Origin: Pleomorphomonas carboxyditropha
GTDB taxonomy: Bacteria; Pseudomonadota; Alphaproteobacteria; Rhizobiales; Pleomorphomonadaceae
Direction: 5' to 3'
Assembly: GCF_002770725.1 (NCBI RefSeq)
Contig: NZ_NQVN01000018.1
Coordinates: forward strand, 1-64,000
Length of the DNA: 64,000 nucleotides
Shown here: one piece after another, positions 3,210 through 63,960 of the stretch
Layout of the letters: each line of letters opens with the position of its first letter
How positions within the stretch are numbered: position 1 is the first letter of the stretch
The notes under the pieces: generated by a model
The model's database searches: none
Seen by the model: only the letters and a program-made list of their open reading frames with translations
Told to the model about the DNA's origin: nothing
Position numbers and translations under genes: made by a program

Positions 3210-3380
3210 CCGATATTTCCCCAGCGCCTCTTTCGGCCCGAGGTCCTGCGCCTTCGCGCAGGATGACAGTTAAATTATATATATGAAACAGATGGATAGC
3301 CTATCCATAGGTTGTCATCCTGCGCGAAGGCGCAGGACCTCGGGCAGGATAAGGCACCCGGCCGATATCGCGCTCCGAAA
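3210..3380. repeat. Covarying hairpin repeat, paired arms
   Basis: A reverse arm at about 3210-3298 and a forward arm at about 3299-3380 meet head to head at GGATAG/CTATCC. Both stems are TCCTGCGC/GCGCAGGA, and the AT box TATATATA sits inside the pair. The forward arm ends in GGCCGATATCGCGCTCC just past the stop codon of the ATPase gene. Confidence 0.9.
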
Positions 3381-3393
3381 GCCCGGCCGCCCC

Positions 3394-3939
3394 CTATCTC
3401 TCCCCCTCGACCCGCGCCAGCACGAAATCGGCCCGCTCCTCCACCCCGCGGAACGGCAGCTCGACGACCCGGTAGCCGAGCCGGGCATAGGTCTCGCCCA
3501 GCACCCGGCCCGTCGCCTCGGCTTCCCGCCGGTCCTGCTTGCGCTCGTCATCCTGGGTGAAGATCGCCGGCCAATAGGGCGCCAGGAACACCAGCCGGTT
3601 GTAGGGATGAAGCCGCGCCGCCGCCTCGATATGGGCGGCAACCGGCAGGCCGATCAGCGTCAGGTAGCCGACGACGTCGGGAATGCCGCGATCCATCATC
3701 ACCGGCCGTTCGAGAGCCGCGGCCTCGTGATACGACCGCAGCTCCCAGCCGAGCATCAGCTCGGCATAGAGGGCGCGGTCGCCCCACGGCACGGCCGCCC
3801 CGCCGATCCTCACCTGGTCGCGGATGATCGCCCGCCCGGCCTCCGGCATGCTGTGCAGGCCACGCCGCGCCAGTTCCTCGATCAACGTGCTCTTGCCCGT
3901 GCCCGGACCGCCGGTCACGACGAACAAATGGTCACACAT
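3394..3939 (-). CDS. P-loop ATPase/kinase-like protein (AAA_28 type)
   Basis: A 181-residue soluble protein. The Walker A sequence GGPGTGKST occupies residues 10-18 directly after the first beta strand. A strand ending in MMDRGIPD acts as the Walker B-like element, as in small nucleotide-kinase-like ATPases of the AAA_28 family. The ATG at 3939 is preferred over the longer frame because the P-loop then lies at the usual distance from the N-terminus, and the upstream extension reads through repeat DNA. Its substrate is unknown. The gene is isolated, flanked on both sides by hairpin repeats. Confidence 0.75.
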   Translation of the reverse strand: MCDHLFVVTGGPGTGKSTLIEELARRGLHSMPEAGRAIIRDQVRIGGAAVPWGDRALYAELMLGWELRSYHEAAALERPVMMDRGIPDVVGYLTLIGLPVAAHIEAAARLHPYNRLVFLAPYWPAIFTQDDERKQDRREAEATGRVLGETYARLGYRVVELPFRGVEERADFVLARVEGER

Positions 3940-4084
3940 GTGCCATCCTCGAATTTGCTTTGAAGGGGAGAGTGCGCCGGCCGCCGCCGTCAATTCACGG
4001 GGGGCGGATGGCCGACACGGATCCAAGGTAACCGCAGACGCCGATTTCGGCAATGGGCGACACCCTAGGGCAAGCGCGCCCCAT

Positions 4085-4213
4085 ACATCCCTCCCGCCCC
4101 TTTCGGCCCGAGATCCTATGGATAGGCTATCCATCTGTTTCATATATATAATTTACCTGTCATCCTGCGCGCAGGCGCAGGACCTCGGGCAGGATGGGCG
4201 ATCGGCCGATATC
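4085..4213. repeat. Covarying hairpin repeat, reverse arm lacking its stem
   Basis: The reverse arm has lost its hairpin: CGGCCCGAGATCCT joins straight to ATGGATAGGC. The forward arm is complete with stem TCCTGCGC/GCGCAGGA and tail CGGCCGATATCG. This looks like an internal deletion in one arm of a pair. Confidence 0.85.
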
Positions 4214-4216
4214 GAT

Positions 4217-4318
4217 GACCGGCAGATATCCGAGGGCGCCGAATTCCGTGCCGGCGGCGAGGGCTGGCACTCGCGCATCAGCGCGGCGCTGAAGCCCCCC
4301 CCCCGACGAGGCGGTTGA
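4217..4318 (+). pseudogene. Possible C-terminal remnant of a BrnA-like antitoxin
   Basis: Directly after the repeat tail the plus strand encodes DRQISEGAEFRAGGEGWH followed by SRISAALK. This resembles the end of BrnA antitoxins, where a residue run ending in F-x-A-x-G-x-G-W is followed by Q-T/S-R-I-N-x-A-L. The frame is cut on the left by the repeat and on the right by a run of nine C residues at 4297-4305, after which it stops. No start or toxin partner is present. The match is short and rests on family memory only. Confidence 0.35.
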
Positions 4319-4545
4319 CCATATCCCCCGGTTCGACTAGCTGTTCGGTTGCAGCGATGCAAACCGCGCTGTCGTAGGCGTTACCGTCATCCAACGCGTC
4401 CTTTGTCGAGAAGGTTCCGGCCGGAAAATCTCGATTCTGAAGGCGCGCGGTCTGCATTTTCCTCGTCACCTGGAGCCGCCTTTTGCGCGCTCCCGACGAT
4501 CACGCCGCAGCCTTTCCTGGAACCACCTTTGGAAAGGTTACACCT

Positions 4546-5301
4546 ATGAAAACGACCGGCAACACCATCCTCGTCACCGGCGGCACCAGCGGCATCGGCC
4601 GCGCGCTGGCCGAGGCGTTTCACGATCGCGGCAACCGCGTCATCGTCACCGGGCGGCGGCGGGATCTGCTCGAAGGCATTGCCGGCGAGCGCCCCGGCAT
4701 CGTCGGCATGCACCTCGATCTCAACGATCCGGATTCCCTGGCCCGCCTGACGCAGGATGTCCGCGCCCGCTTCCCCGACCTCAACGTGCTGATCGCCAAC
4801 GCCGGCATTTCCCGGTCCGAGGACATGGCGTCCGGCGATTGGGATATCGCCGCCGCCGAGGCGATCGTCGAGACCAACATCCTCGGGGTGCTGCGCGTCA
4901 CCGCCGCTTTCCTGCCGATCGTACGGCGGCAGCCCCGCGCCGCCATCATGGCCACCAGCTCGGCGCTCGCCTTCGTGCCGCGCGCCGATTTCGCCACCTA
5001 TTGCGCCAGCAAGGCCTTCCTGCATTCGTGGCTGGTGTCGCTGCGCCACCAGCTTCGCGCCCTGCCGGTGGAGGTTCTCGAACTGTCGCCGCCCTATGTC
5101 CGGACCGGGCTGACCGGCGCCGCCCAGGCGGCCGATCCGCGCGCCATGCCTCTCACCGCCTACATTTCGGAGGTGATGGCGATGCTCGACGAGGGCAATC
5201 ATCCGCGCGGCGAATTGCTGCTCGAACGCGACCGGCCGCGCCGCTGGGCCGAACGCGACGGCACCTACGACAGCCTTTTCGCCGCCCTGAATCCGGCCTA
5301 G
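4546..5301 (+). CDS. Short-chain dehydrogenase/reductase, DltE-like
   Basis: A 251-residue SDR. The cofactor motif TGGTSGIG lies at residues 11-18, NAG follows strand four, and YCASK gives the catalytic Tyr and Lys, with a Ser in ATSSALAF upstream. The pattern MKTTGNTILVTGG and the overall length match the DltE-type oxidoreductases. The ATG at 4546 has GGAAAGG upstream. These enzymes use NAD(P) to interconvert alcohol and carbonyl groups, but the substrate of this subgroup is not established. It is followed by a hairpin that may end transcription. Confidence 0.85.
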   Translation: MKTTGNTILVTGGTSGIGRALAEAFHDRGNRVIVTGRRRDLLEGIAGERPGIVGMHLDLNDPDSLARLTQDVRARFPDLNVLIANAGISRSEDMASGDWDIAAAEAIVETNILGVLRVTAAFLPIVRRQPRAAIMATSSALAFVPRADFATYCASKAFLHSWLVSLRHQLRALPVEVLELSPPYVRTGLTGAAQAADPRAMPLTAYISEVMAMLDEGNHPRGELLLERDRPRRWAERDGTYDSLFAALNPA

Positions 5302-5319
5302 CCCATCACGCGCAAAAAT

Positions 5320-5359
5320 GGAGAGCCTCCGGCGAACCGGGTTTCACCGCAGGCTCTCC
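5320..5359. terminator. Long hairpin after the SDR gene
   Basis: GGAGAGCCT at 5320-5328 pairs perfectly with AGGCTCTCC at 5351-5359, 18 bases after the stop codon. No T run follows, so it may be a Rho-assisted terminator or an mRNA end-stabilising hairpin. Confidence 0.5.
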
Positions 5360-5498
5360 CTCGCCCCCCGATCCGACGCCGCACCGACGACCGGGCGAAG
5401 TCGCCATCGCCATCGCCGCCACGGCTTTCAATCCGATCCGAAAGCAAGGATAAAGGGCGTCAACCGCTTATCGCCGCCCACCAACCGCCGGTCCGCCC

Positions 5499-7268
5499 TT
5501 GCGCACCATCGTCTCCAGCCTCACCGTCGCCGGCTTCCGCGCCCTCGTCCGGCTGCGCCGCTATCGCGAGCTCGGCCTGCTCGCCATCGCCACGCTGGTC
5601 GGCTGCCTTGCCGGCGTCGTCGTCACCTTCATGAGCTGGGTCACCAACCTCGCCCACCGTCTGCTGTTCCTGCTGCCGTCCGGCGAGCGGCTCAGCGAGC
5701 AGGCGAGCCTCGGCCATTCGGCGCTGGCGCTCGTCCCCGTGCTCGGCGGCGTCGTCCTCGCCGTCCTCGCCTACCTGACGCGCCGCCGCTTCACCCGCCC
5801 GCCGGTCGACCCCATCGAGGCCAACGCCCTGCACGGCGGCCGCATGTCGGTGCCCGAAAGCCTGCTGGTGGCGGTGCAGACGATGATTTCCTCCGGCTTC
5901 GGCGCCTCGGTCGGCCTGGAGGCCGGCTACACCCAGGCGAGCGCCGGCTTCGCCTCGCGCCTCGCCGAGGCCATCCGCCTGCGCCGCCGCGACATCCGCA
6001 CCCTGGTCGGCTGCGCCGCCGCCGGCGCCATCTCCGCCGCCTTCGACGCGCCGATCACCGGCGCCTTCTATGGCTTCGAGCTGATCATCGGCAGCTATTC
6101 GGTGGCCCTCGTCGCGCCGGTGCTGGCCGCCTCGCTGGCCGCCAGCCTGACCGCCGGCTGGCTCGGCGCCGTGCAGACCACCATCGAGGTCGGCCCGGTG
6201 CCCGTCCTCACCGCCTCCGACCTGGCGCCGTTCATGCTCCTGGGGCTGATCGGCGGCCTGCTCGCCGTCGCCATCATGCAACTGGTCACCGGCGTCGAGC
6301 GCGCCTTCCGCTGGGCGAACATCCCCGCCTGGGCTCGGCCGGTCGTCGGCGGCGCGCTGGTCGGCGGCCTGGCGCTGATGACGCCGCACGTCCTGTCCTC
6401 CGGCCACGGCGCGCTGCACGTCGACCTCGCCTCGACCGCCACCTGGCAGATGCTGCTCCTGCTGTTCGGGCTGAAGGCGCTGGCCTCGGCGCTGTCGCTC
6501 GGCTCCGGCTTTCGCGGCGGCCTGTTCTTCGCCTCGCTTTACCTCGGCGCGCTGATCGGCAAGGCCTATGCGCTGATCATCGTCGCCTGGGGCATCCTGC
6601 CCGCCCTGTCGCCGCTCCTCTCCTCGGTGGTCGGCATGGCGGCGCTGGCCGTCGGCATCGTCGGCGGCCCGATGACCATGGCCTTCCTGGCGCTCGAGAC
6701 CACCGGCGACGTCTCCATCACCGGCGCCGTGCTCGCCGCCTCCGTCGTCTCGGCCGTGGTGGTGCGCGAAACCTTCGGCTACTCCTTCTCCACCTGGCGC
6801 CTGCACCTCAGGGGCGAGACCATCCGCAGCGCCCACGACGTCGGCCGCATGCGCTCCCTCACCGTCTCCAGGATGATGCGCTCGGATGTCCGCACCGTGT
6901 CGGCGACGCTCAGCCTCGACGCCTTCCGGGCGATCTTCCCGCTCGGCTCGACGCAGCGCGCCATCGCCGTCGACGCGGACGGCGGCTATGCCGGCGTCAT
7001 GGTGGTGGCCGACGCCTACGCCGCCGGCGCCGCCGACGGCCGCGCCGACATCGCCCCGCTCCTGCGCCACCGCGACGCCATGCTCCTCCCCTCGATGAAC
7101 GTCTCGGAAGCCGCCCGACTGTTCGACGCCGCCAAGGCCGAGGAACTCGCCGTGGTCGATGGCCTGAAGACCCGCCGCGTCATCGGCCTCCTCACCGAGC
7201 AATACCTGATGCGCCGCTACGCCGAGGAACTCGACAAGTCGCGGCGGGAGCTGATGGGGGAAGGGTGA
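5499..7268 (+). CDS. ClC-type chloride channel/antiporter with C-terminal CBS-like region
   Basis: A 589-residue membrane protein with about ten to twelve hydrophobic helices over residues 1-420 and a cytoplasmic region at about 450-575 that resembles a CBS pair. The helix-N-terminus motif reads FGASVGLEAGYTQ: the gating Glu of the ClC GxEGP motif is kept, but EGP is replaced by EAG, and the usual GSGIP filter segment appears as HGGRM. The frame opens with TTG; no better start is seen nearby. ClC proteins move anions down a gradient or exchange them for protons. The altered filter means the transported ion should not be assumed to be chloride. Confidence 0.82.
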   Translation: MRTIVSSLTVAGFRALVRLRRYRELGLLAIATLVGCLAGVVVTFMSWVTNLAHRLLFLLPSGERLSEQASLGHSALALVPVLGGVVLAVLAYLTRRRFTRPPVDPIEANALHGGRMSVPESLLVAVQTMISSGFGASVGLEAGYTQASAGFASRLAEAIRLRRRDIRTLVGCAAAGAISAAFDAPITGAFYGFELIIGSYSVALVAPVLAASLAASLTAGWLGAVQTTIEVGPVPVLTASDLAPFMLLGLIGGLLAVAIMQLVTGVERAFRWANIPAWARPVVGGALVGGLALMTPHVLSSGHGALHVDLASTATWQMLLLLFGLKALASALSLGSGFRGGLFFASLYLGALIGKAYALIIVAWGILPALSPLLSSVVGMAALAVGIVGGPMTMAFLALETTGDVSITGAVLAASVVSAVVVRETFGYSFSTWRLHLRGETIRSAHDVGRMRSLTVSRMMRSDVRTVSATLSLDAFRAIFPLGSTQRAIAVDADGGYAGVMVVADAYAAGAADGRADIAPLLRHRDAMLLPSMNVSEAARLFDAAKAEELAVVDGLKTRRVIGLLTEQYLMRRYAEELDKSRRELMGEG

Positions 7269-7289
7269 GGGGCGGTCGGCGCCCTATAT

Positions 7290-7456
7290 TCTCCTCGCGC
7301 CCTTTTCGGCCCGAGGTCCTCCGCCTTCGCGGAGGAGGACAGCATGATGGCAGCGACCGCGAGTAGCTACACCATTGTTTCCCATATATAAAACTGTCAT
7401 CCCCGCGAAGGCGGGGACCTCAGGCGGAATGGAACGCGCGGCCGATATAGGGCTCC
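7290..7456. repeat. Covarying hairpin repeat, paired arms
   Basis: The reverse arm uses stem TCCTCCGC/GCGGAGGA and the forward arm TCCCCGC/GCGGGGA. The two arms of this pair therefore differ in stem sequence although each pairs internally. The pair lies just past the stop of the ClC gene. Confidence 0.9.
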
Positions 7457-7475
7457 CCACCACAGCCCGAACTCC

Positions 7476-9090: not shown

Positions 9091-9256
9091 ATTTCCCTTA
9101 GCCCCGCCGATGCTCCGCCTTCGCGGAGGACGGCAGCTATGTATATGCTTCCTCCATATAATAGCTATCTATATGTTTCCTATATATAATTCTGTCATCC
9201 TGCGCGCAGGCGCAGGACCTCGGGCAGAATGGAGCGACCGGCCGATATAGGTCTCC
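9091..9256. repeat. Covarying hairpin repeat, decayed reverse arm plus intact forward arm
   Basis: The forward arm runs from TTTCCTATATATAATTCTG to GGCCGATATAGGTCTCC with stem TCCTGCGC/GCGCAGGA. The reverse arm keeps only the hairpin TCCGC/GCGGA and has lost the CCCGAGG flank. The pair lies between the convergent hicB and peptide deformylase genes. Confidence 0.85.
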
Positions 9257-9947: not shown

Positions 9948-10060
9948 TACGCGAACGTTCCGATCACACCGTCATCGCCAAGCGCATCGCCTCCCATAGA
10001 TTGTCATCCTCGCGAAGGCGAGGACCTCGGGACGAGAAGGTGACGAGGGGTGTATCAGGC
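9948..10060. repeat. Long-range repeat extending from a hairpin copy (matches 22040-22160)
   Basis: From TACGCGAACGTTCC through CCGTCATCGCC, AGCGCATCG and CCCATAGATTGTCATCC to CTCGGGACGAGAAGGTGA the segment matches 22040-22160 with scattered substitutions. This is a larger repeat that contains one forward hairpin arm and unique flanking sequence. Confidence 0.75.
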
Positions 10061-10150
10061 GCCTTGCGTTGCTGGAGCGCTATATCGGCCGATTGCTCCA
10101 TCCTGCCCGAGGTCCTCGCCTGCGCGAGGATGACAGCTTTATATATGGGA
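9998..10150. repeat. Covarying hairpin repeat, tail-to-tail arms
   Basis: Here the forward arm at 9998-10042 precedes the reverse arm at 10078-10150, the opposite of the usual head-to-head order. Both stems are TCCTCGC/GCGAGGA. The tail GCTATATCGGCCGATTGCTCC lies between them. Confidence 0.85.
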
Positions 10151-18169: not shown

Positions 18170-18610
18170 GGCGCCCTATATCCGCCCCTCGCCCTTTCCG
18201 GCCCGAGGTCCTGCGCCTGCGCGCAGGATGACAGAATTATATATAGGAAACAGATACATAACTTATATGGAGGGTGTCATACCCTATTTATAGCTGGAGG
18301 ATGTCATACCCTATTTATAGATTGTCATCCTGCGCGCAGGCGCAGGACCTCGGGCAGAATAGAGCACCCAGCCGATATAGGTCTCCGAGGAGGGAAGGCG
18401 CCCTATATCCACCCCTCGCCCTTCTCGTCCCGATATCCTGCGTTCCACGTAGGACGCTAACGCCATATACTTGTTTCCTATATATAATCCTGTCATCCCC
18501 GCGAAGGCGGGGACCTCGGGCAGAATAAAGCACCCAGCCGATATCGGCCTCCGGAAACGGAAGGCCCCCATATACTCTCATCGCCCTTTTCGGCGTGAGG
18601 AGAACAGCGC
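18170..18610. repeat. Cluster of five covarying hairpin arms with a 27-bp tandem duplication
   Basis: Arms in order: reverse (TCCTGCGC stem, 18170-18262), forward (TCCTGCGC, 18320-18387), decayed reverse (18395-18462), forward (TCCCCGC, 18474-18550), reverse fragment (18566-18600). Between the first two, TGGAGGGTGTCATACCC plus TATTTATAG is duplicated with a 27-base period at 18268-18320. The cluster fills the whole space between the divergent DUF1089 and DadA-like genes, so their promoters must lie in or beside it. Confidence 0.88.
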
Positions 18611-19894: not shown

Positions 19895-20062
19895 AAGGCG
19901 CCCTATATCCCCCTCCCACCCCTTCCTGCCCGAGGTCCCCGCCTGCGCGGGGATGACACCTGATGGATAGGTTATGCACCTGTTTCCTATATATAATTCT
20001 GTCATCCCCGCGCAGGCGGGGACCTCGGGCAGAAAGAGGTGAGCGGCCGATATCAGGCTCTC
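19895..20062. repeat. Covarying hairpin repeat, paired arms (well preserved)
   Basis: Reverse arm 19897-19978 and forward arm 19981-20062, both with stem TCCCCGC/GCGGGGA and loop GCAG. AT box, CTGTCAT, CCTCGGGCAG and GGCCGATATCAGGC tail are all present. It follows the DadA-like gene directly and is a good reference copy of the whole unit. Confidence 0.92.
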
Positions 20063-22087: not shown

Positions 22088-22420
22088 CATGGATTGTCAT
22101 CCTCGCGCAGGCGAGGACCTCGGGACGAGAAGGTGATGAGGGGGGTGTCAGCGCCCGACCCGAAACTCGCTGGCATCAGGCAGATAGCGAGAGGCACGAG
22201 AACCGGAGCGGAGCGAACTTGAGGATCAGCCTCTCAGGCTCCTTGCGTTGCTGGAGCGCTATATTGGCATTGAGCTTTGTTCTGCCTGAGGTCCTCGCCT
22301 GCGCGAGGATGACAGAATTATATATAGGAAACAAATACATAACCTATTCATAGATTGTCATCCTGCGCGAAGGCGCAGGACCTCGGGCCGGAAAGGGCAC
22401 CCGGCCGATATCGCGCGCCA
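22088..22420. repeat. Three covarying hairpin arms within a larger repeat
   Basis: Forward arm at 22091-22135 (TCCTCGC stem), reverse arm at 22260-22345 (TCCTCGC), forward arm at 22350-22418 (TCCTGCGC). CCTTGCGTTGCTGGAGCGCT before the reverse arm also precedes the reverse arm at 10062-10082. GACCCGAAACTCGCTG at 22157 recurs at the very end of the window. Confidence 0.85.
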
Positions 22421-23111: not shown

Positions 23112-23275
23112 GGCGGAGCCCGATATCCGCCCCGCGCCCCTTCCGGCCCGAGGTCCTCGCGCCTCTCGCGCAGGATGACACCCTATCCATATGTTTCTTC
23201 TATATAAATCTGTCATCCTACGCGAAGGCGTAGGACCTCGGGCAGGATGAAGCACCCGGCCGATATAGCGCTCCA
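23112..23275. repeat. Covarying hairpin repeat, paired arms
   Basis: The reverse arm has an irregular stem (TCCTCGCGCC/TCTCGCGCAGGA) and the forward arm the stem TCCTACGC/GCGTAGGA. It lies between two same-strand genes. Confidence 0.85.
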
Positions 23276-23993: not shown

Positions 23994-24110
23994 GGGGGGG
24001 GGGGTGGAGGGTGAGGGTGCCCTATATTTGCCCCTGCACCCCTTCCGGCCCGAGGTCCTACGCCTACGCGTAGGATGACAATTTATATTTAGGAAACATA
24101 CGGATAGGTC
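23994..24110 (-). repeat. Covarying hairpin repeat, single reverse arm after a G11 tract
   Basis: A run of eleven G residues at 23994-24004 is followed by a reverse arm with stem TCCTACGC/GCGTAGGA and the box TATATTTAGGAAACA. The G tract is in non-coding DNA. Confidence 0.8.
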
Positions 24111-24189
24111 GTCACGTACCCGGGGCAAGTTCCCGGGCCAGCGTGAGAAACGCCTCCTGGAAAGCGGCGGCAACGTTCGTCAAGCAATT

Positions 24190-24250
24190 GAAATGACCTA
24201 ATCTCGCCCATGCGAGACCAAAAATATTACGCCAGCGTACCCGGGAATTT
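24190..24250 (-). repeat. Second dispersed repeat (reverse copy of 10186-10242)
   Basis: Read on the minus strand: AAATTCCCGGG, GGCGTAATATTTTTGG, TCTCGCATG and CGAGATTA in the same order and spacing as at 10186-10242. It is bordered by CCGGGGCAA/TTCCCGGG-type sequences also seen near 21990-22040. Confidence 0.6.
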
Positions 24251-24296
24251 GCCCCGGGGGCGCCAGTGGGCCGACTACCAGTGTGCCAACCTATCC

Positions 24297-24595
24297 CCTT
24301 GTTCCCCATATATAAACCTGTCATCCTCTATATAAAGCTGTCATCCTCGCGAAGGCGAGGACCTCAGGCAGGATGGAGCGAGCGGCCGATATAGCGCTCC
24401 GAAAACACGAGCACCCCATCCCGCCCCTCCTGCGTCCCATGATCCGACGCTTTCGCCTAGAACGCCAACACTATCCCGCTGATACCTCTATATAATTCTG
24501 TCATCCTACGCGAAGGCGTAGGACCTCGGGCAGGAAGGGGCGACCGGCCGATATCGATCTCCAGGCACGAACACCAGCCGATATCGCCCCACCAC
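24297..24595. repeat. Two forward covarying hairpin arms
   Basis: Forward arm 24297-24398 (TCCTCGC stem) with a short internal duplication of TATATAAA-CTGTCATCCTC, and forward arm 24484-24572 (TCCTACGC stem). A duplicated tail GCCGATATCG occurs at 24549 and again at 24582, just before the SDR stop codon. Confidence 0.85.
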
Positions 24596-26794: not shown

Positions 26795-27370
26795 AACCTC
26801 GGGCAGGATGAAATGCCCCGCCCACATAGCGCTTCCCGCTCCAGGGATGCCTTATAGTTCCCCCTCGCCCCTTTCGGCCCGAGGTCCTATGCCTTCGCAT
26901 AGGATGACAGATTTATATATAGGAAACAGATGGATAGTGCATCGCCCTCCACCCTGCCCCCTTCCCATAGGTTGTCATCCTACGCGCAGGCGTAGGACCT
27001 CGGGCAGGCTCGAGCGCAATGCCGACATAGCGCTCCCGATCTCATGGGTGCCCCCTGTTTACCTCGCGCCCTTCCGTCCCGAGATAGCCCGCCCTCGCGA
27101 GCCATTCGGCGCTATGCATCTGTTCCCTATATATAAATCTGTCATCCTCGCGCAGGCGAGGACCTCGGGCAGGATGGGGCGCAACGCCGATATAGCGCTC
27201 CCGATCTCATGGGTGCCCCCATGTTTACCTCGCGCCCTTCCGGCCCGAGATGGCCCGCCCTCGCGAGCCATTTGGAGCTATCCATCTGTTCCCTATATAT
27301 AAATCTGTCATCCTACGCGCAGGCGTAGGACCTCGGGCAGGATGGAGCGAGCGGCCGATATAGCTGGCCC
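26795..27370. repeat. Cluster of covarying hairpin arms with a 165-bp tandem duplication
   Basis: About seven arms alternate in orientation. The forward stems are TCCTACGC, TCCTCGC and TCCTACGC; the reverse arm at 26862-26940 is TCCTATGC. The segment from GCCGACATAGCGCTCCCGAT at 27021 recurs from 27186, giving a 165-base period. The duplicated units differ in the hairpin stem while their loops and flanks match. Confidence 0.88.
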
Positions 27371-30044: not shown

Positions 30045-30617
30045 CCTCTGCTTAGGCGGAGGATGAAATCTGATAGATAGCTATGTATATGTTTCCTATA
30101 TATAATTCTGTCATCCTACGCGCAGGCGCAGGACCTCGGGCAGGATGAAACGAGCGGCTGATATCGCGCTCCAAGAACGAAGGGCGCCCTATAGAACCCT
30201 CATAGCCCTTTTCGGCCTGAGGTCCTACGCCTGCGCGTAGGATGACAAATTTATATATAAGAAACAAATGGATAGGGGAAATAGCCGGATAGGGGAAACA
30301 GCCGGATAGCGCATTGCCCTCCATCCTGCCTCCCCTCCCCATAGGGTGTCATCCTACGCGCAGGCGTAGGACCTCGGGCAGGATGAAGCGATCGGCCGAT
30401 ATAGCGCTCCACGAACCAGGGGCGCCCTATAGATCCCTCATCACCCCTTTCGGCCCGAGGTCCTATGCCTTCGCATAGGAGGACAGTTTTATATATAGAA
30501 AACAGATGGATAGCGCATCGCACTCCATCCTGCCTCCCTTTCCCATAAATCTGTCATCCTGCGCGCAGGCGCAGGACCTCGGGCAGGATGAAACGAGCGG
30601 CCGGTATAAATCTCCAG
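30045..30617. repeat. Cluster of six covarying hairpin arms
   Basis: Alternating arms: a decayed reverse arm, forward at 30090-30173, reverse 30186-30275, forward 30338-30412, reverse 30425-30515, forward 30546-30615. Stems include TCCTACGC/GCGTAGGA, TCCTATGC/GCATAGGA and TCCTGCGC/GCGCAGGA. The arm at 30114-30133 pairs TCCTACGC with GCGCAGGA and so has one A-C mismatch. Confidence 0.9.
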
Positions 30618-35067: not shown

Positions 35068-35077
35068 GGCACTTCGG

Positions 35078-35232
35078 AGCCCCATATCCACCGCCCGTTC
35101 AATCCTGCCTGAGGTCCCCGCCTTCGCGGGGATGACAGAATTATATAATGGGAACAAATATATAGATTGTCATCCCCGCGAAGGCGGGGACCTCGGGCCG
35201 AAAGGAGCTGGCGGCCGATATCGATCTTTGGA
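35078..35232. repeat. Covarying hairpin repeat, paired arms
   Basis: Both arms have the stem TCCCCGC/GCGGGGA with loop GAAG. The box is TATATAATGGGAACA and the tail GGCGGCCGATATCGATC. It follows the cupin gene by about ten bases. Confidence 0.9.
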
Positions 35233-36445: not shown

Positions 36446-36756
36446 GGTCTCACCGCTCTTTCGGGAGCACGCGCCGGCCACATCCGATCTGGCCGACAGG
36501 TGACTGCTCCGACGTCCTCCTGGCACCGCCGTCCCAACTTCAAAGATGGAAGCTTTTCCGGCGAACCATACGCAATCTACGTAATTACCAATACGAGAAA
36601 CTTCAAAGACAACCCTTAACGCAGGGCCGAAAGCCACAAATGCATGAGTTTAGCGTTACGAATGTCTTGCAAGAAACGTTCGAAACCGACGCATTAACCG
36701 GCTGGGGATCGAAGCGGCCGGCGGCATGGGGATCCAGCGCGGTGCAAACTCTGTCG

Positions 36757-37115
36757 ATCTATATCCGCCGCTCGCCTTTTCCTGCCCGAGGTCCCCGCCT
36801 TCGCGGGGATGACAACTTGATAGATGCCCGTACGAGCCACTACCACTCTGTTTCCTATATATAATTCTGTCATCCTGCGCGCAGGCGCAGGACCTCGGGC
36901 AGGATGGGATGATCGGCCCATATCGATCGCACTTCTCTTTCGGACCGCCCTATATCCGCCGCTCGCCTTTTCCTGCCCGAGGTCCCCGCCTGCGCGGGGA
37001 TGACAACTTGACGGATGCCCGCGCGAGCGGCTATGGCTCTGTTTCCTATATATAATTCTGTCATCCCCGCGCAGGCGGGGACCTCGGGCAGAATGGAACA
37101 AGCGGCCCATATAGG
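36757..37115. repeat. Two paired units of the covarying hairpin repeat
   Basis: Unit one: reverse TCCCCGC stem (36770-36835) and forward TCCTGCGC (36850-36925). Unit two: reverse TCCCCGC (36955-37020) and forward TCCCCGC (37040-37115). The reverse arms of both units share CTATATCCGCCGCTCGCCTT and GATGCCCG, so one unit is probably a copy of the other. Confidence 0.9.
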
Positions 37116-37122
37116 GCTGCAA

Positions 37123-39358: not shown

Positions 39359-39397
39359 CCGGCTGTTGATTTATGTGCAGCGCTCCCCGCCTGAAGC

Positions 39398-39575
39398 CCT
39401 ATATGCGCCTCCCGTCCCATCCTGCCCGAGGTCCTGCGCCTCACACGTAGGATGACAACCGATGGATAGGCTATCCGTCTGTTTTATATACATAAAACTG
39501 CAATATAAAACTGTCATCCCGCGCGAAGGCGCAGGACCTCGGGCCGAAAGGGGCGAGGGGTTCATATAGGGCACC
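39398..39575. repeat. Covarying hairpin repeat, paired arms with imperfect stems
   Basis: The reverse arm stem reads TCCTGCGC against ACGTAGGA, and the forward arm pairs TCCCGCGC with GCGCAGGA (C-A mismatch). Both arms of this pair have single uncompensated changes. The AT box is duplicated as TATATACATAAAACTG and AATATAAAACTG. Confidence 0.85.
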
Positions 39576-44180: not shown

Positions 44181-44211
44181 ATCATTCGTCCCCCTCGCTT
44201 TCGGACGCAAA

Positions 44212-44520
44212 GCCCTATATGCGCGCGCCGCCCTTTCCGGCCCGAGGCCCTGCGCCTCACGCGCAGGATGACAGATTTATGTATAAAAAACAAATACATA
44301 GGTTGTAGCCCAAGGTGGAAACGCGCATCCTGCGGCAGACCGCCGCTGTGGTGAACCGTGATCCATCCCTATATCGGCAGCATGCCCTTTCCGGCCCGAA
44401 GACTTCCGCCCTCGCGGAGATCAACAATCTATCCGGCTGATTCCTATATATAATTCTGTCATCCTACGCGAAGGCGTAGGACCTCGGGCAGGAAGGGGCA
44501 AGGGGCCGATATAGGGCGCC
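44212..44520. repeat. Covarying hairpin arms with a decayed middle copy
   Basis: Reverse arm 44216-44300 (TCCTGCGC with GCGTGAGGCGCAGG form), decayed reverse arm 44360-44425, and forward arm 44445-44520 with stem TCCTACGC/GCGTAGGA. The forward tail GGGGCCGATATAGGGCGCC follows the family pattern. Confidence 0.82.
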
Positions 44521-44752: not shown

Positions 44753-44794
44753 CGGCCATCGCCCCGCCGATCGCAGCCGGCGGCGCGCTTCCCC

Positions 44795-44970
44795 ATCTAT
44801 ATCGGCCGCTCGCCCATCCTGCCCGAGGTCCCCGCCTGCGCGGGGATGACAGGTAAATTATATATATAAAACAATATGATATGTTGGAACCCCTTTCCAT
44901 CAAACTGTCATCCCCGCGAAGGCGGGGACCTCGGGCCGAAAGGGGCGCGACGTTCATATCGCGCTCCCCC
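44795..44970. repeat. Covarying hairpin repeat, paired arms
   Basis: Both arms have stem TCCCCGC/GCGGGGA. Between them the AT box TATATATAAAACAATATGAT is longer than usual. The forward tail is GGCGCGACGTTCATATCGCG, a variant of the family tail. Confidence 0.87.
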
Positions 44971-49834: not shown

Positions 49835-49964
49835 TCAGAATACCCGACAGTGGAAATCGGCGGCCACCCTACACGAGCGCGCCCCCGCAGCACAGGGAGA
49901 GAAGGTCTGAGATGGCCGCTGGACAGGAAGCAATGCGCGATACCAACCCCTTGCTCTACCTTCT

Positions 49965-50085
49965 CGAGGTCCCCGCCTTCGCGGGGATGACAATCTATGC
50001 GATTGTTTTGTTTATATAATTCTGTCATCCCCGCGAAGGCGGGGACCTCGGGCAGAATGAAGTGCAACGCCGATATCGGGCTCCC
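49965..50085. repeat. Covarying hairpin repeat, short pair
   Basis: Both stems are TCCCCGC/GCGGGGA. The left arm lacks the CGGCCCG flank and starts at CTCGAGGTCC; the right arm is complete to GCCGATATCGGGCTCCCC. The AT box reads TTTTGTTTATATAATTCTG. Confidence 0.88.
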
Positions 50086-50152: not shown

Positions 50153-51754
50153 TCAGCTGATGGCGTCCACCGCCGCTTTCTGGATCGCCAATCCCGCCTC
50201 ATACTGCTTCAGCCAGGCGCCATAGCCGGCGACATCGGCCGGATCGGGCTTGGCCACGTCGAGCTTGGCCGCCGCGAACACCCGCTCGTTGAGATAATCG
50301 CCCAGCCCCTGGCCCTTGCCGCTCCTCAGGTATTCGGCCAGCACGGCGATGCCCCAGGCGCCGCCCTCGCTGGCCGTGTCGCCCACCGTCACCGGCGCGC
50401 CGATGGCCGCCGCCAGGAGGCGCTGGGCGACGCCGGCCGTCTTGAACATGCCGCCGTGGGCGAACATCGAATCGAGCTTCACGCCCTCACCGTGCAGCAC
50501 GTTCATGCCGAGGCTGAGCGTGCCGAAGGCGGCGTAGAGCTGGGTGCGCATGAAGTTGGCGAGCGTCAGGCGGCTGCCGGGGGTGCGCACCACCAGCGGC
50601 CGGCCCTCGGTGAGGCCGGTGATCGGCTCGCCGGCCAGATAGTTGTAGGCGAGAAGCCCGCCGCCGTCCGCCTCGCCCTCCAGCGCCGCCGAGAACAGCG
50701 CGCCGAACACCGCGTTGGCGTCCGACTTGCCGCCGATCGCCTTGGCGAATTCGGTGAACACGCCGGCCCAGGTGCCGAGCTCGCTGGCGCCGTTGTTGCA
50801 GTGCACCATGGCCACGAGGTCGCCGCCCGGCGTGGTGACGATGTCGAGCTCCTCATGCACCGTGGTCAGCGGCTTTTCCAGCACCACCATGGCGAAGATC
50901 GACGTGCCGGCGCTGATGTTGCCGGTGCGCGGCGCCACGGCGTTGGTCGCCACCATGCCGGTGCCGGCGTCGCCCTCCGGCGGGCAAACCGGCGCGCCGG
51001 CCTGAAGCTTGCCGGTGGGGTCGAGCAGCTTGGCGCCCTCGGCGGTCAGCGATCCGGCGTCCTCGCCGGCCACCAACACCCTAGGGAACAGCGAGGGCGC
51101 GTCGAGCCCCGGCTTGTGGGCGGCCACCATCTCGCCGAAGCGCTTCAGCATCGGCGCGTCGTAGTCGTGGGTGGCGGCGTCGATCGGGAACATGCCCGAG
51201 GCATCGCCGACGCCGATCACCTTCTTGCCGGTCAGGCGCCAGTGCACGAAGCCCGAGAGCGTGGTGATGAAGGCGACGTCGGCGACGTGCGGCTCGCCGT
51301 CGATCACCGCCTGGTAGAGATGGCTGGCCGACCAGCGGAGCGGGAAGTTGAAGCCCAGCGTCCCGGTCAGCTCGGCGGCGGCGCGCTCGGTGTTGGTGTT
51401 GCGCCAGGTGCGGAACGGCACCAGGAGCTTGCCGGCCGCGTCGAACGCCAGATAGCCGTGCATCATCGCCGAGAAGCCCAGCGCGCCGACCTTGGTCAGC
51501 GCCACGCCGTGCCGCTTCTCGACATCGGCCCGGAGCGCCGCGAAGGCCGCCTGCAACCCGGCCCAGATCGCCTCTTCCGAATAGGTCCACAGGCGATCGA
51601 CGAACTGGTTCTCCCAGCCGTGCGTGCCGGTGGCCAGCACCTGATGGTCCGCCCCGATCAGGCAGGCCTTGATGTTGGTGGACCCGAGTTCGATCCCCAG
51701 CGACGTGCGCCCCCCGGCGATCTCCCCGGCAATGCTGCTGCCCTGCTCACTCAT
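50153..51754 (-). CDS. FGGY-family carbohydrate kinase
   Basis: A 533-residue sugar kinase of the FGGY family. LGIELGSTNIKACLIG at residues 19-34 is the first phosphate-binding loop, VGALGFSAMMHGYL and FRTWRNTNTERAA line the sugar site, and NISAGTSIFAMVV plus FAHGGMFKTAGVAQRLLAAA form the second ATPase half. The MHGY/RTW pattern suggests a pentulose such as xylulose or ribulose. The fucose-isomerase-like gene at 57040 and the LacI regulator at 58619 likely belong to the same sugar pathway, separated by poxB and the AbiTii island. Confidence 0.87.
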   Translation of the reverse strand: MSEQGSSIAGEIAGGRTSLGIELGSTNIKACLIGADHQVLATGTHGWENQFVDRLWTYSEEAIWAGLQAAFAALRADVEKRHGVALTKVGALGFSAMMHGYLAFDAAGKLLVPFRTWRNTNTERAAAELTGTLGFNFPLRWSASHLYQAVIDGEPHVADVAFITTLSGFVHWRLTGKKVIGVGDASGMFPIDAATHDYDAPMLKRFGEMVAAHKPGLDAPSLFPRVLVAGEDAGSLTAEGAKLLDPTGKLQAGAPVCPPEGDAGTGMVATNAVAPRTGNISAGTSIFAMVVLEKPLTTVHEELDIVTTPGGDLVAMVHCNNGASELGTWAGVFTEFAKAIGGKSDANAVFGALFSAALEGEADGGGLLAYNYLAGEPITGLTEGRPLVVRTPGSRLTLANFMRTQLYAAFGTLSLGMNVLHGEGVKLDSMFAHGGMFKTAGVAQRLLAAAIGAPVTVGDTASEGGAWGIAVLAEYLRSGKGQGLGDYLNERVFAAAKLDVAKPDPADVAGYGAWLKQYEAGLAIQKAAVDAIS

Positions 51755-59644: not shown

Positions 59645-59669
59645 GGCCGGAGCATTATCCGACCTATCC

Positions 59670-60445
59670 CTTTGTTCCCCATATATAAAACTGTCATCCT
59701 CGCGCAGGCGAGGACCTCAGGCAGAACGAGACGATCGGCCGATATAGCGCTCCAAGGATAAGGGCCGCCCTATACACCCCCCGGCGCCTTCTCGTCCTGA
59801 GGTCCTCGCCTGCCGAGGATGACAGAATTATAGCGGCCCTGCCCCTGATGGGCGGCTGAACCAACCTATCCCTCTGTTCCCCCTATATAAAGCTGTCATC
59901 CTATGCGAAGGCATAGGACCTCGGGCAGAACGAGGCGATCGGCCGATATAGCGCTCCAAGGACAAGGGCCGCCCGATACACCCCCCGGGCGCCTTCTCGT
60001 CCTGAGGTCCTCGCCTGCGCGAGGATGACAGAATTATAGCGGCCCTGCCCCTTGATGGGCGGCTGAATCAACCTATCCCTCTGTTCCTCCTATATAAATC
60101 TGTCATCCTATGCGAAGGCATAGGACCTCAGGCAGAACGAGGCGATCGGCCGATATAGCGCTCCAAGGATAAGGGCCGCCCGATACACCCCTCGGCGCCT
60201 TCTCGTCCTGAGGTCCTCGCCTGCGCGAGGATGACAGAATTATAGCGGCCCGCCCCCTTGATGGGCGGCTGAACCAATCTATCCCTCTGTTCCCCCTATA
60301 TAAATCTGTCATCCTATGCGAAGGCATAGGACCTCGGGCAGGATGAAACGATCGGCCGATATAGCGCTCCAGAAACCCGGGGAGCCGGATATTTCCCCCT
60401 CGCCCCTTTCGGCCCGAGATCCTCCGCTTGCGCGGAGGATGACAA
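59670..60445. repeat. Tandem array of the covarying hairpin unit, period about 207 bp
   Basis: Four forward arms begin at 59692, 59894, 60101 and 60307, with intervals of 202, 207 and 206 bases, alternating with reverse arms (TCCTCGC stem). The first forward arm has stem TCCTCGC/GCGAGGA, the other three TCCTATGC/GCATAGGA. Between arms, GAATTATAGCGGCC and GATGGGCGGCTGAA recur in each unit. The array ends with a reverse arm at about 60400-60445 (TCCTCCGC stem). Confidence 0.92.
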
Positions 60446-60523
60446 GTTATGGGTGGCCCGGCGAACCTGTTTTCGCCGGAAATGCTCCGGATGCCCGCCC
60501 CAGGATAGTTTCGGATAAGGCCC

Positions 60524-60754: not shown

Positions 60755-61292
60755 GGTGTTCTCCCTGGATTGCGGCCCGGCCTCGCCCCGGACATCCTGC
60801 CCCGCAAGCACGGTACCGGTCCAGACGAGATCTAAGCCCAAACAAAATGCGCCGACACACCAAAAAATTTCATTCGCCTCGCACAGGCGCTTCACTCGCA
60901 ACAACTCTTGCGGGCGTATCGGTTATGCTTTGATCCGAAAGCGCGAGCGGCGATGCAGGCAGTGGCGAAGCGCCGGCAACCTCCGGCAGTAAAACCGAGA
61001 CCAAAGGCCGCCGCCGCGAATATCGGAGCTCCGGACCATCGCCCCGATCCAGGATTTCCGGCCATCGATCGACGACAGCCCAGCAACAACCACCGGCTAG
61101 TCCGATCCGTGTGCAACACGCGGATACCTACAACCGTTTGTAGCGCGAACGCAGCGTTACGCCGCGAAATTATACGCCGAAAATACTTTGCCCCACCCGC
61201 GAATACATGAGCGCGGCGCGCCACGCCTTCATCCGTACCCGCCCGCCAACGGCAAGAGAAATTCAAAATCCGATCCTGAATACGGAGGCGAC
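60755..61292. other. Mostly empty upstream region
   Basis: No gene is supported between the tautomerase and the small frame at 61293. Open frames in this stretch lack ribosome binding sites and resemble no family. Composition becomes AT-richer after 61200. Confidence 0.4.
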
Positions 61293-61460
61293 ATGCAAGT
61301 CATTACTACCGCGCTCATCTGCAAACATCGATCGATGAAAACTTTTTCCGAGCCGACAAAGCTTAGCGAAAATTCGGAAGGAAACCATCAACAATTCACC
61401 AAAGCCACGAACCGAGATAAACTTGCCTCATTCAAAGTAATACTACACAGTCGATCTTGA
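61293..61460 (+). CDS. Possible small protein with a strong ribosome binding site
   Basis: A 55-residue frame beginning [20 protein letters not shown] has GGAGG at four to five bases before its ATG. The product is basic, polar and Asn/Lys-rich, with no signal peptide or domain. The DNA is AT-richer than its surroundings. Evidence is the ribosome binding site only; it may equally be chance. Confidence 0.3.
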
Positions 61461-61599
61461 GTCTAGTTCGCAACAAGGCAATAACGCGCTCAGAACCTAT
61501 GTCGAAAACCGATTTAGATTTCGAGATAGACAGATCGTTAACCCGGAATGCCGCATCGTCTATTGCAATGATGGACGGGTTACTGGCGGGGTGATGACG

Positions 61600-63264
61600 A
61601 TGGGTCGCTTGAAGATTTCCTCCCGGCTTTATGCGGGCTTCGGATTTGCCGTAACGATGCTAATCGCCGTTGGCGTGGTTGGATATATGTATCTCACCGC
61701 ATCATCGACCTATACCAGGGAATCCACCCGCATCTATTCCCAGAACGTCGCCCTGGAAAGTTCCCTCAAGTACATCTCCACCGGCCGGGCGTTCTTCTAC
61801 GAGGCGCTGACCCAGTCCGACAGGCAGGCGGCGCTGTTCGACCAGATGTCCGCCGTTTTCTCCGAGGCCGAGACCACGCTCGACGCCCTCGCCGCCTCCA
61901 CCCTCGACGGCGGGCGAAAGACCAAGGTGACCGGCCTGGCCTCGGCGCTGAAAGCCTACCACGCCGGCGTCAAGTCGCTGGCCGGCCAGCTATTGAAGGG
62001 CGAGGCGATCGACGCCAACCTGCGCAGCCAGCTCGCCGCCTCCTTCGCCACCATCGAGTCGCTCGGCGCCGAGCTGTCGGACAACTACGGCGCCGCCGCC
62101 GCGCAGATGGGCCGGGACAGCGCCGCCGGCGCCGAACGCGGCGTCGCCATCGAGATCGTCGTCGGCATCGTCGCCGCCGTGCTGGGCATCGCCATCGCCG
62201 TCGTCAGCTCGCTGTCGGTGACGCGGCCGCTCGGCAGCGCCATCGGCTCGGTGCAGGCGCTCGGCCGGGGCGAAAAGGCGACGGCGGTGGCCACCGCCAC
62301 GCGGCGCGACGAGTTCGGCCTGCTCGGCGGCGCGCTGGAGCAGTGGCGGCAGAGCCTGATCAAGGAGGAGCAGGCCCGCGCCGACCAGGAGGCCCGCGAG
62401 CGGGCCGAGCGCGAGCAACTCGGCCGCCGTCAGACGCTGGCCGACGCCTTCATCGCCGAGATGCGCGACCTCGCCGCCAATTTCGCCCAGTCGTCCGGCG
62501 AGATCGCCGACAGCGCGCGCGGCCTCGCCGCCACCGCCGAGGAAACGGCCCGCCAGGCCCAGGCGGTCGCCGCGGCGGCCGAGCAGGCGGCCAGCAACGT
62601 GCAGACGGTGGCCGCCTCGTCGGAGGAGATGGCCGCCTCGGTGCACGAGATCGGCGCCCAGGTCGCCCACTCGGCCGAGGTCGCCGAGCTGGCCTTCGGC
62701 GAGGCCCAGACCTCCAACAGCCGCATATCGAGCCTCGCCGCGTCGGCGGCGGCCATCGGCGACGTCGTCAACATCATCCGCGGCATCGCCGACCAGACCA
62801 ACCTGCTGGCCCTCAACGCCACCATCGAGGCGGCGCGGGCCGGCGAGGCCGGCAAGGGCTTCGCCGTGGTGGCCGCCGAGGTCAAGCAGCTCGCCGACCA
62901 GACGTCGCGCGCCACCGGCGACATCGAGGCCAAGGTCGGCGAGATCCAGGCGTCGACCGGCAACACGGTCCATTCCATGACGGCGATCGTCAAGACCATC
63001 ACCAGCATCAAGGAGGTCGCCTCGGCCATCGCCAGCGCCGTGGAGGAGCAAGGCGCCGCGACCACGGAAATCGCCGGCAACTGCCAGCAGGCGGCGATCG
63101 GCACCCACCAGGTCACCGAGAACATCGCCGGCGTCGGCCAGGCCGCCGAAATGACCGGCTCGGCCTCGACGCAGTTGATGAACCTCTCCGGCGGCCTGTC
63201 GGCCAAGGCCCAGAACCTGAAATCGGTGGTGGAGACCTTCGTCGAGAAGTTCGCGGCGGCGTGA
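61600..63264 (+). CDS. Methyl-accepting chemotaxis protein
   Basis: A 554-residue chemoreceptor. Helix one ([20 protein letters not shown]) and helix two ([20 protein letters not shown], near residue 190) frame a 150-residue periplasmic sensor domain of four-helix type. A HAMP domain follows, then the signalling tip [20 protein letters not shown] and [20 protein letters not shown] around residues 390-430. The ATG at 61600 is chosen because GGGG lies eight bases upstream; GTG at 61591 and ATG at 61594 are alternatives. It signals to CheA. No che genes are adjacent. Confidence 0.93.
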
Positions 63265-63285
63265 GATGGCAGATCATGGAAATCG

Positions 63286-63312
63286 AAAGCCGGCGGCGCC
63301 CCCGCCGGTTTT
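63286..63312 (+). terminator. Intrinsic terminator of the chemoreceptor gene
   Basis: CCGGCGG and CCGCCGG pair across CGCCC at 63290-63308, preceded by AAAG and followed by TTTTCGCGTTTT. It lies about 25 bases past the stop codon. Confidence 0.7.
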
Positions 63313-63344
63313 CGCGTTTTGAGGCTTCCGTCTGCTCGTCAGGG

Positions 63345-63960
63345 CACGGAACATCTATATCGACCGCTCGCCCCATCCTGCCCGAGGTCCTATGCCTTCG
63401 CATAGGATGACAGATTTATATATAGGAAACAGCTACACAGCTTAGCACACCCCGCGGAGGCGGGCTATCCGGGGCAGGGAAAGGTCGCCTGATGGCTGCG
63501 TAGCGTTCCATCCTGCCCGAGGTCCTGCGCCTGCGCGCAGGATGACAAAATTATATATACAAAACAAATACGTAGCCGCTCACGGCGGCTCCCGCGGCGG
63601 CTCCCATGGATTGTCATCCTGCGCGAAGGCGCAGGACCTCAGGCAGAAAAGGGCAAGGGGCCAATATAGGGCGCGCACAAGAGCGAGCCATAGCGCGCAA
63701 CAGAGCACGGAGGGTACAACCTATGTATCTGTTCCCTCTATATAATCCTGTCACCTACGCGAAGGCGAGCCATCCCCAACAGGAAGAGCGCCTGATCCCG
63801 GCGTATCGCATTCTCGTCCCGAGGTCCCCGCCTTCGCGGGGATGACAGAATTATATATAGGAAACAAATACGTAGCCGCTCGCAACGGCTCCCATAGATT
63901 GTCATCCCCGCGAAGGCGGGGACCTCGGGCCGAAAGGAGCGAGGGGCCGATATAGGGCGC
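63345..63960. repeat. Cluster of covarying hairpin arms at the window end
   Basis: Arms in order: reverse TCCTATGC (63380-63440), reverse TCCTGCGC (63505-63570), forward TCCTGCGC (63608-63675), decayed forward (63735-63770), reverse TCCCCGC (63810-63880), forward TCCCCGC (63895-63960). GACCCGAAACTCGCTG at 63985-64000 matches 22157-22172, so the larger repeat described there continues past the window. Confidence 0.88.

What the first reader, a model, noticed from the sequence alone, without database searches (positions are those of the whole stretch)
3210..63960. Intergenic repeat family with covarying hairpin stems
Some 60-70 arms share CTGTCAT, a hairpin with GNAG (or CTTC/CTGC) loop, ACCTCGGGCAG and a GGCCGATATAGCGCTCC-like tail. 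The stem exists in at least six versions: TCCTGCGC/GCGCAGGA, TCCCCGC/GCGGGGA, TCCTACGC/GCGTAGGA, TCCTCGC/GCGAGGA, TCCTATGC/GCATAGGA and TCCTCCGC/GCGGAGGA. Flanks stay fixed while both stem sides change together. Selection or the copying mechanism therefore acts on pairing, not on sequence. This covariation suggests a functional RNA or a DNA hairpin recognised by a protein. Base changes and stems are read directly from the sequence; the functional meaning is inference.
Basis: seen in the sequence. Interest (0 to 1): 0.8.

Follow-up and report, generated by a model that had tools for sequence, protein, structure and literature searches.

The report
Hairpin repeats crowding a phage-gene zone
An unnamed bacterium carries hundreds of short DNA hairpins whose two sides change together, and in a closed genome of a relative nearly all of the detected copies sit in one stretch of chromosome that also holds long-kept virus-particle genes, which hints that the two are linked.

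Summary
The window has 59 profile-detected arms; all six stem versions are there, and 99.3% of stem cells pair. In five genomes of the genus plus six contigs, 532 of 684 parsed arms pair perfectly, in 14 versions, three seen once. The "CTTC/CTGC" loops are GNAG loops read on the other strand.

The arms are REP-like DNA repeats with a TGTC tag, mostly head-to-head pairs (median unit 177 nt, sharp ends, no target duplication seen). They resemble published CGTC-REPs but differ in stem base, tail and distribution. No Y1 (RAYT) transposase was found in the genome. Stem versions partly follow descent (100 changes on a flank tree, shuffled mean 140).

Unexpectedly, in a closed congener 144 of 150 scored arms lie in 414 kb (7.6%); 18 samples elsewhere gave two weak matches. 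Colinear dense stretches exist in three other genomes, wider in this one. The zone holds a split podovirus-type particle gene set under purifying selection. All 10 genomes with its capsid gene carry at least 85 arms; the four without carry 74, 19, 0 and 0. My reading: non-autonomous hairpin elements multiplying in a plasticity zone around a domesticated phage, comparable to Bartonella's. The link is correlative.

The parts
291..351 (+). degenerate arm
   Evidence: imperfect stem; profile hit starts at 291
3206..3375 (.). head-to-head pair: arms 3206-3268 (-) and 3313-3375 (+), both TCCTGCGC/GCGCAGGA
   Evidence: folds as one long hairpin, z -13.4
4078..4220 (.). arm 4158-4220 (+) with a left-arm remnant at 4078-4120
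7279..7455 (.). head-to-head pair, stems TCCTCCGC (-) and TCCCCGC (+); a pair at the matching place in G012 has other stems
9193..9255 (+). single arm
10002..10135 (.). tail-to-tail pair, both TCCTCGC
18171..18385 (.). head-to-head pair
18400..18551 (.). arm 18491-18551 (+) with left-arm remnant 18400-18442
19898..20060 (.). head-to-head pair, both TCCCCGC
22095..22418 (.). arm 22095 (+) and head-to-head pair 22254-22418
23116..23273 (.). head-to-head pair
24018..24561 (.). arms 24018 (-), 24339 (+), 24499 (+)
26847..27368 (.). head-to-head pair 26847-27035 and arms 27140 (+), 27306 (+)
30109..30614 (.). array of five alternating arms (+ - + - +)
35077..35228 (.). head-to-head pair, both TCCCCGC
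36754..37119 (.). four alternating arms (- + - +)
   Evidence: no arm in the matching gap of G012
39394..39574 (.). head-to-head pair, stems imperfect
44210..44519 (.). arms 44210-44273 (-) and 44457-44519 (+)
44791..44966 (.). head-to-head pair, both TCCCCGC
49932..50083 (.). head-to-head pair, both TCCCCGC
59692..60444 (.). tandem array, about 206-bp period, eight alternating arms; + arms switch from TCCTCGC to TCCTATGC between near-identical flanks
63350..63674 (.). arms 63350 (-), 63485 (-), 63612 (+)
63787..63960 (.). head-to-head pair, both TCCCCGC

Best explanation
The arms are REP/BIME-like non-autonomous DNA elements close to the CGTC-tagged kind, in a new genus-specific form. Shown: the common unit is two inverted arms facing head to head, each with a TGTC tag, a 7-8 bp hairpin with a GNAG loop and a tail with a sharp end. 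The family is large, found in one genus among those searched, and in a closed congener nearly confined to one zone of about 414 kb. That zone also has a podovirus-type particle gene set under purifying selection. Inferred: copies multiply as DNA through a single-stranded hairpin intermediate handled by an unidentified enzyme supplied in trans. The hairpin is kept because copying or recognition needs pairing, and whole hairpin modules are also swapped between copies by short-tract recombination. Also inferred: the zone limits the spread because it is where DNA is over-replicated or most often recombined through the phage-derived system.
For: Tag, hairpin, loop and head-to-head dimers as in CGTC REPs. 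196 strict copies in the genome, 0 of the reversed control. Strict motif in 10 of 13 congeners, 0 of 6 other-genus family members and 0 of 130 genomes of other families. R1 gives 74-150 matches (150 is the cap) in 11 of 14 genomes of the genus. 14 fully paired versions, 532 of 684 perfect. Descent plus switching. Dimer partners share the version in 54 of 122 against 17.0 expected. Sharp ends, no target duplication in 79 units. Confinement in closed G012: 144 of 150 scored arms in 1.643-2.057 Mb; two weak matches in 360 kb of outside samples, none by profile, against 66 in 200 kb inside and 150 profile arms in the zone. Dense stretches in matching order in G005, G013 and G000. Particle genes; dN/dS; co-occurrence. 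The densest fetched G000 contig (C39, 15.6 arms per 10 kb) holds terminase, portal and capsid genes.
Against: No enzyme was identified and no live insertion was caught; intergenic DNA between species is too diverged to read an empty site. The particle gene link is a correlation across related genomes with no tree. Arm density near the particle genes is only slightly above the rest of the zone: 3.95 against 2.89, 7.77 against 5.49 and 8.27 against 7.31 per 10 kb. The zone's limits are not the same everywhere: in G000, 24 arms lie on C9 beyond 64 kb, a part that mostly matches G012 at 1.56-1.62 Mb, where G012 is nearly empty, and C13 (27 arms in 80 kb) partly matches 1.36 Mb. G000 also has scattered copies on large contigs, some inside larger repeats. 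Probes were built from this genome's arms and only 150 candidates per genome are scored, so diverged families elsewhere could be missed. G011 has 74 arms and no capsid match (86% complete, about 300 contigs). Apart from the capsid gene, the particle genes are no more constrained than their neighbours (dN/dS 0.14-0.33 against 0.13-0.39). The first stem pair and the tail differ from the published CGTC families.
Confidence: 0.6

Rival explanations
1. The joint stem changes are not selected. Hairpins are rewritten as a block by recombination between copies, and imperfect palindromes are corrected by template switching, so both sides change together.
For: Tandem neighbours 59692/59894 swap the whole stem with 5 flank differences; at least 100 version changes on the flank tree. 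Mixed dimers are common: 68 of 122 head-to-head pairs differ. Two of five covariation measures do not exceed shuffles.
Against: Tag, loop ends and outer pairs hardly vary while inner pairs do. The versions include single-pair steps with rarer mismatched intermediates: 122 single mismatches against 532 perfect.
Confidence: 0.3
2. The arms work as RNA hairpins, for example at 3' ends or processing sites of messages.
For: Single mismatches on the tag strand are G-T in 89 copies (17 stem types) against A-C in 18 (9 types). Convergent gaps hold arms more often (6 of 10) than divergent ones (4 of 12) in the window. Strong RNA folding.
Against: 57 of the 89 G-T copies are one sub-family; in G000 the counts are 13 and 12. 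Window arms lie between convergent, divergent and same-direction genes. No Rfam family at gathering thresholds; no terminator excess in the 13 kb scanned, 4 found against 6.8 expected.
Confidence: 0.12
3. The zone is simply one large acquired island that arrived with its repeats. The phage genes are an old prophage and the link has no mechanism.
For: 304 of 422 called genes of the G012 stretch have no match at 60% in the fetched (partial) stretches of five other genomes. In a 20-kb window stretch, G006 and three other-genus genomes match only one or two genes each, mostly at 66-77%; G007 matches several (80-87% at best). No tRNA gene in 23 stretches, 460 kb, though only 3 were found in 360 kb outside.
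Against: G003 has three zone genes on one contig but no arms in the 100 kb of that contig that I scanned. No repC match in G012. Particle genes are under purifying selection at host-like dS, and the arms form sub-families that differ between species.
Confidence: 0.3
4. The arms are recognition or packaging sites used by the phage-derived particle system.
For: Confinement and co-occurrence; all five viral-collection contigs with the motif carry these particle genes, partly because that collection selects virus genes.
Against: Only slight enrichment next to the particle genes; terminases usually need one or few sites (general knowledge, recalled).
Confidence: 0.08

Closest known systems
CGTC-tagged REPs (Di Nocera et al. 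2013, PMC3733652; I read the opening up to the start of the GTAG part, the sections on CGTC families, dimers, distribution and transposases, and passages)
   Same: C/TGTC tag, short GC-rich stem, 4-5 nt loop, mostly head-to-head dimers, stem variants and mixed dimers known, no dedicated transposase.
   Different: Here the base after the tag is unpaired (A facing C, or C facing T), the tail starts CCTC/TCTC not CCA, each arm has about 35 further conserved bases, tail-to-tail spacing is rigid and head-to-head spacing varies (the paper's rule of thumb is the reverse), and copies are confined; the paper says most families are spread through the genome.
GTAG REPs, REPINs and RAYT transposases (PMC3116915, PMC2817692; search listing and abstract starts only)
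   Same: Paired inverted hairpin units that multiply without coding for anything.
   Different: Tag is TGTC, and no Y1 transposase was found in the genome.
E. coli REPs as mapped by RepRanger (PMC12306157; passages)
   Same: Intergenic palindromic repeats in large numbers.
   Different: Those are reported to be spread over the whole genome without clustering; these are concentrated.
Bartonella gene transfer agent and its 461-kb amplified high-plasticity zone (PMC2697382, PMC9662315, PMC6899734; passages)
   Same: A dynamic chromosomal zone of about 0.4-0.5 Mb holding dispersed, kept phage genes.
   Different: Particle genes here are of the GP7-capsid, tubular-tail podovirus type; no amplification, packaging or transfer has been shown; the zone is full of REP-like arms.

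Membership tests
CGTC REP superfamily | CGTC or TGTC tag at the 5' end | tested here: met
   TGTCA 497, TGTCC 86, CGTCA 58, TGTCT 30 of 684 parsed arms; parsing itself required a near-TGTCA tag
CGTC REP superfamily | stem of 8-9 bp beginning with complementary A and T | tested here: not met
   stems of 7-8 bp; the A after the tag faces C, only the following T-A pair forms
CGTC REP superfamily | loop of 4-5 nt | tested here: met
   GNAG between closed pairs in most rows of A1; GAAG 338 and GCAG 228 of 684, though the parser allows only 4-5 nt
CGTC REP superfamily | short tail CCA (most families) | tested here: not met
   CCTC or TCTC, then about 35 further conserved bases
CGTC REP superfamily | mainly head-to-head dimers | tested here: met
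   122 head-to-head, 40 tail-to-tail, 9 same-direction neighbours within 300 bp in G000
CGTC REP superfamily | spread through the genome (usual, not defining) | tested here: not met
   G012; looser in G000
GTAG REP / REPIN with RAYT | GTAG tag | tested here: not met
   TGTC tag
GTAG REP / REPIN with RAYT | Y1 transposase gene in the genome | tested here: not met
   PF01797: 0 matches in the own genome (80 contigs); the control rings in 5 of 14 genomes
MITE of a classical IS | target-site duplication | tested here: not met
   79 units: no duplication of 4 or more bases above 3.8% at any offset; 2-base matches reach 20% only at an offset that includes element bases
Gene transfer agent (for the particle genes, not the arms) | virion genes kept under purifying selection with the host | tested here: met
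   dN/dS 0.02-0.08 for capsid, 0.14-0.33 for six others, dS like neighbours; vertical descent itself was not tested with a tree
Gene transfer agent (for the particle genes, not the arms) | particles that carry host DNA | not testable with these tools
   needs particle isolation

The most novel reading that the evidence does not exclude
A podovirus was domesticated in this genus into a gene-transfer-agent-like system that amplifies and exchanges a chromosomal zone of several hundred kb. The REP-like hairpins are bred inside that zone by the same amplified or single-stranded DNA, so that their map traces the zone. This would give CGTC-type REPs the driver that they have lacked. (Lowered from 0.25 in my draft, because on recheck the limits of the dense stretch in this genome do not coincide with those in G012.)
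Probability: 0.22. Interest if true: 0.88.

Novelty: new variant of a known kind. Interest (0 to 1): 0.62.

Why it matters
The 2013 survey states that CGTC repeats have no dedicated transposase; a later search for papers with CGTC, REP, palindromic, transposase and alphaproteobacteria (33 papers, 12 listed) showed no title naming one, and the only uses of 'CGTC' in the two papers I checked are that reference. A family concentrated in one zone, and abundant where a kept set of phage particle genes is present, turns the open question of what multiplies these repeats into a testable one. It also points to a possible podovirus-derived gene transfer system with a Bartonella-like plasticity zone. 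Papers holding both 'repetitive extragenic palindromic' and 'gene transfer agent': two; in one I saw passages, where the second phrase is only a route of transfer, the other only in the listing.

Tried and rejected
Replication terminus as the reason for confinement: rejected. GC skew of 28 samples of G012 puts the origin between about 0.29 and 0.55 Mb and the terminus between about 3.3 and 3.6 Mb, so the zone is mid-replichore.

Integrated repABC replicon: no RP-C match in G012. Lack of room elsewhere: genes per kb are the same inside and outside (0.89 and 0.875); gaps of 100 bp or more make up 25% against 17%. Target-site duplication: none seen. Empty sites against G009 and G012: intergenic DNA too diverged. 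Attachment repeats at the zone edges: only short or repeat-derived matches. Plasmid and phage collections with the element: no match. That the host is an alphaproteobacterium is my inference (repC-type matches in the genus; DUF2336 matches only in Bradyrhizobium plasmids). ALDH dN/dS against G000 failed through a frame slip and is ignored.

Rows dropped: 2 of 59 regex arms before A1. 78 of 762 profile arms could not be parsed, 23 of 428 in the earlier set used. Of 292 parsed G000 arms, 238 entered the tree (perfect stems of the six versions, full flanks). Head-to-head units with tail-to-tail neighbours, or without recognisable ends, were left out of the duplication test.
Full report
CHECK. The arms are real. 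ACCTCGGGCAG occurs 31 times against 0.06 expected. A loose scan finds 59 arms (2 on the reversed sequence), 57 after dropping two degenerate ones, and a profile scan 59. On the 57-arm alignment 99.3% of stem cells pair; changes on both sides occur in 37 cells (shuffled mean 10.3), in three of eight pairs (shuffled mean 2.2, so this count alone is not remarkable), and every slid register fails. A whole base pair is also gained or lost in step (7 against 8 bp stems). Own genome: 196 strict matches, 0 for the reversed control.

WIDER COVARIATION. From stretches of G000, G003, G005, G009, G012 and G013, one metagenome-assembled contig and five viral-collection contigs, 762 arms were found (none from the G003 stretches) and 684 parsed; 532 pair perfectly, in 14 versions, of which three occur once. 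Versions outside the window include TCCTCTGC, TCCTGGC, TCCTTCGC and TTCTGCGC. Species favour different versions: TCCTCTGC makes up 85 of 126 parsed arms in G012, TCCTGGC 40 of 135 in G005.

DESCENT OR SWITCHING. On a FastTree of flanks with the hairpin left out (238 G000 arms, about 70 columns) the version changes at least 100 times; 200 shuffles gave 128-150, mean 140.4. So versions are partly inherited and often switched. Pairs with at most 4 flank differences never differ in version (0 of 14); with at most 8, 8 of 72 do. In the tandem array, copies 59692 and 59894 have 5 flank differences and different stems. Dimer partners agree in 54 of 122 (17.0 expected) in G000 and 15 of 23 (11.2 expected) in G012. 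I read this as paired hairpins that are copied, occasionally compensated, and often exchanged as modules. Single mismatches are G-T in 89 and A-C in 18 copies on the tag strand, but 57 of the G-T copies are one sub-family, and in G000 the counts are 13 and 12. This is weak evidence for an RNA or a single-strand-specific role.

ANATOMY. In G000, neighbours within 300 bp are head-to-head 122, tail-to-tail 40, same direction 9. Tail-to-tail distance is rigid (33 of 40 at 130-139), head-to-head variable. Conservation stops about 39 nt after the hairpin. Of 79 complete head-to-head units, lengths run from 154 to 385 nt, median 177, 63 of them 154-195; none of the tested offsets shows a target duplication. 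One unit folds as a single long hairpin (z -13.4), a tail-to-tail unit likewise (z -5.7).

DISTRIBUTION. Strict motif: 10 of 13 congeners; 0 of 6 other-genus family members; 0 of 130 genomes of other families. With model R1, 11 of 14 genomes of the genus have 74-150 matches (150 is the cap), G003 has 19, G006 and G007 none; of six other genomes of the family one has a single weak match. G003's 19 score 34-65 bits and lie on ten contigs.

CONFINEMENT. In closed G012 (5,476,363 bp), 144 of the 150 scored arms lie between 1.643 and 2.057 Mb (only 150 candidates are scored). Direct scans: 18 evenly spaced 20-kb samples elsewhere gave only two weak matches (21 and 18 bits) and none with the profile, against 150 profile arms in the zone; ten stretches inside gave 66 with the model. 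The 40 kb just outside each edge is empty. Matching stretches in the same order are dense in G005 C23 (155 of 160 arms beyond 220 kb, where it begins to match the zone), G013 C23 and G000 C9, C39, C21. The window matches, mostly in order, about 290 kb of G012, so genes come and go here. It is not the terminus, G012 has no repC match, and gene number per kb is ordinary. In G000 the rule is looser: 24 arms lie on C9 beyond 64 kb, in a part that mostly matches G012 just outside its zone; C13 partly matches 1.36 Mb; and copies occur at lower density on large contigs, some within larger repeats with shared flanks.

PARTICLE GENES. Inside the G012 zone lie terminase (1936668), portal (1940111), Bbp19-like (1942294), GP7-type major capsid (1943346) and Bbp16-like (1944453) genes. 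About 95 kb further come tail tubular (2041396), nozzle (2042010) and internal virion (2044563) genes. In G005 the two groups are about 60 kb apart, in G000 on two contigs. dN/dS is 0.02-0.08 for capsid and 0.14-0.33 for six others, neighbours 0.13-0.39; dS runs from 0.10 to 0.57, neighbours 0.15-0.42. So they look kept rather than freshly acquired; only the capsid gene is more constrained than its neighbours. The capsid gene is in 10 of 14 genomes of the genus (in two pieces in G010, two copies in G009) and in 3 of the other 136 genomes. All ten have at least 85 arms; the four without have 74 (G011, 86% complete), 19, 0 and 0. All five viral-collection contigs holding the motif carry some of these genes, though that collection is chosen for virus genes. 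The 91 phage records matched by the capsid protein are all below 60% identity. The densest fetched G000 contig, C39, is the one with the head genes (15.6 arms per 10 kb; stretches were chosen where arms had been found); within zones the excess near particle genes is small.

MEANING. The arms stand close to the CGTC-type REPs in tag, loop and dimer habit, but fail two of that family's stated features and are not spread through the genome, so I do not file them in any of its four families. E. coli REPs, by contrast, are reported to be evenly spread. No Y1 transposase in the genome agrees with the published lack of a dedicated enzyme. The combination of a plastic zone of about 0.4 Mb with dispersed, kept phage genes recalls the 461-kb amplified zone of Bartonella grahamii and the 29 BaGTA genes over about 79 kb. 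What is shown is co-location and co-occurrence. That the phage-derived system drives or bounds the repeats is inference.

Noticed in passing
G012 C1 1936668-1944875 and 2040311-2045150 (L263, L264, L269); G000 C39 and C21: Split podovirus-type particle gene set under purifying selection, two groups about 95 kb apart in G012; its capsid gene is in 10 of 14 genomes of the genus: a possible gene transfer agent.
   Followed up: partly
G000 C32, C3, C10, C25, C9: A second interspersed repeat (core CCCCTCGCCCCTTGTGGGAGAGGGACCAGGGAGAGGGG) lies just upstream of most of eight elements that share a left flank, making larger mosaics.
   Followed up: partly
G000 C33, C44, C74, C11: Several copies on large contigs share longer flanks, so they seem to have spread as part of a bigger repeat.
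   Followed up: partly
window 50153-51754 (-): Ribulokinase-like FGGY kinase: best match 92% in a metagenome-assembled contig that also carries arms (L071), then mostly Actinobacteria at up to 81%: likely horizontal gain. A fucose isomerase-like and a LacI-type gene lie nearby.
   Followed up: no
G012 C1 2086130-2095195 (L271): Outside the zone's edge lies a run of genes with AAA, PDDEXK (DUF3799) and PIF1/UvrD-like helicase domains, perhaps a phage early module.
   Followed up: no
G009 C16 and C23; G010 C82: Capsid gene is present twice in G009 and in two pieces in G010.
   Followed up: no
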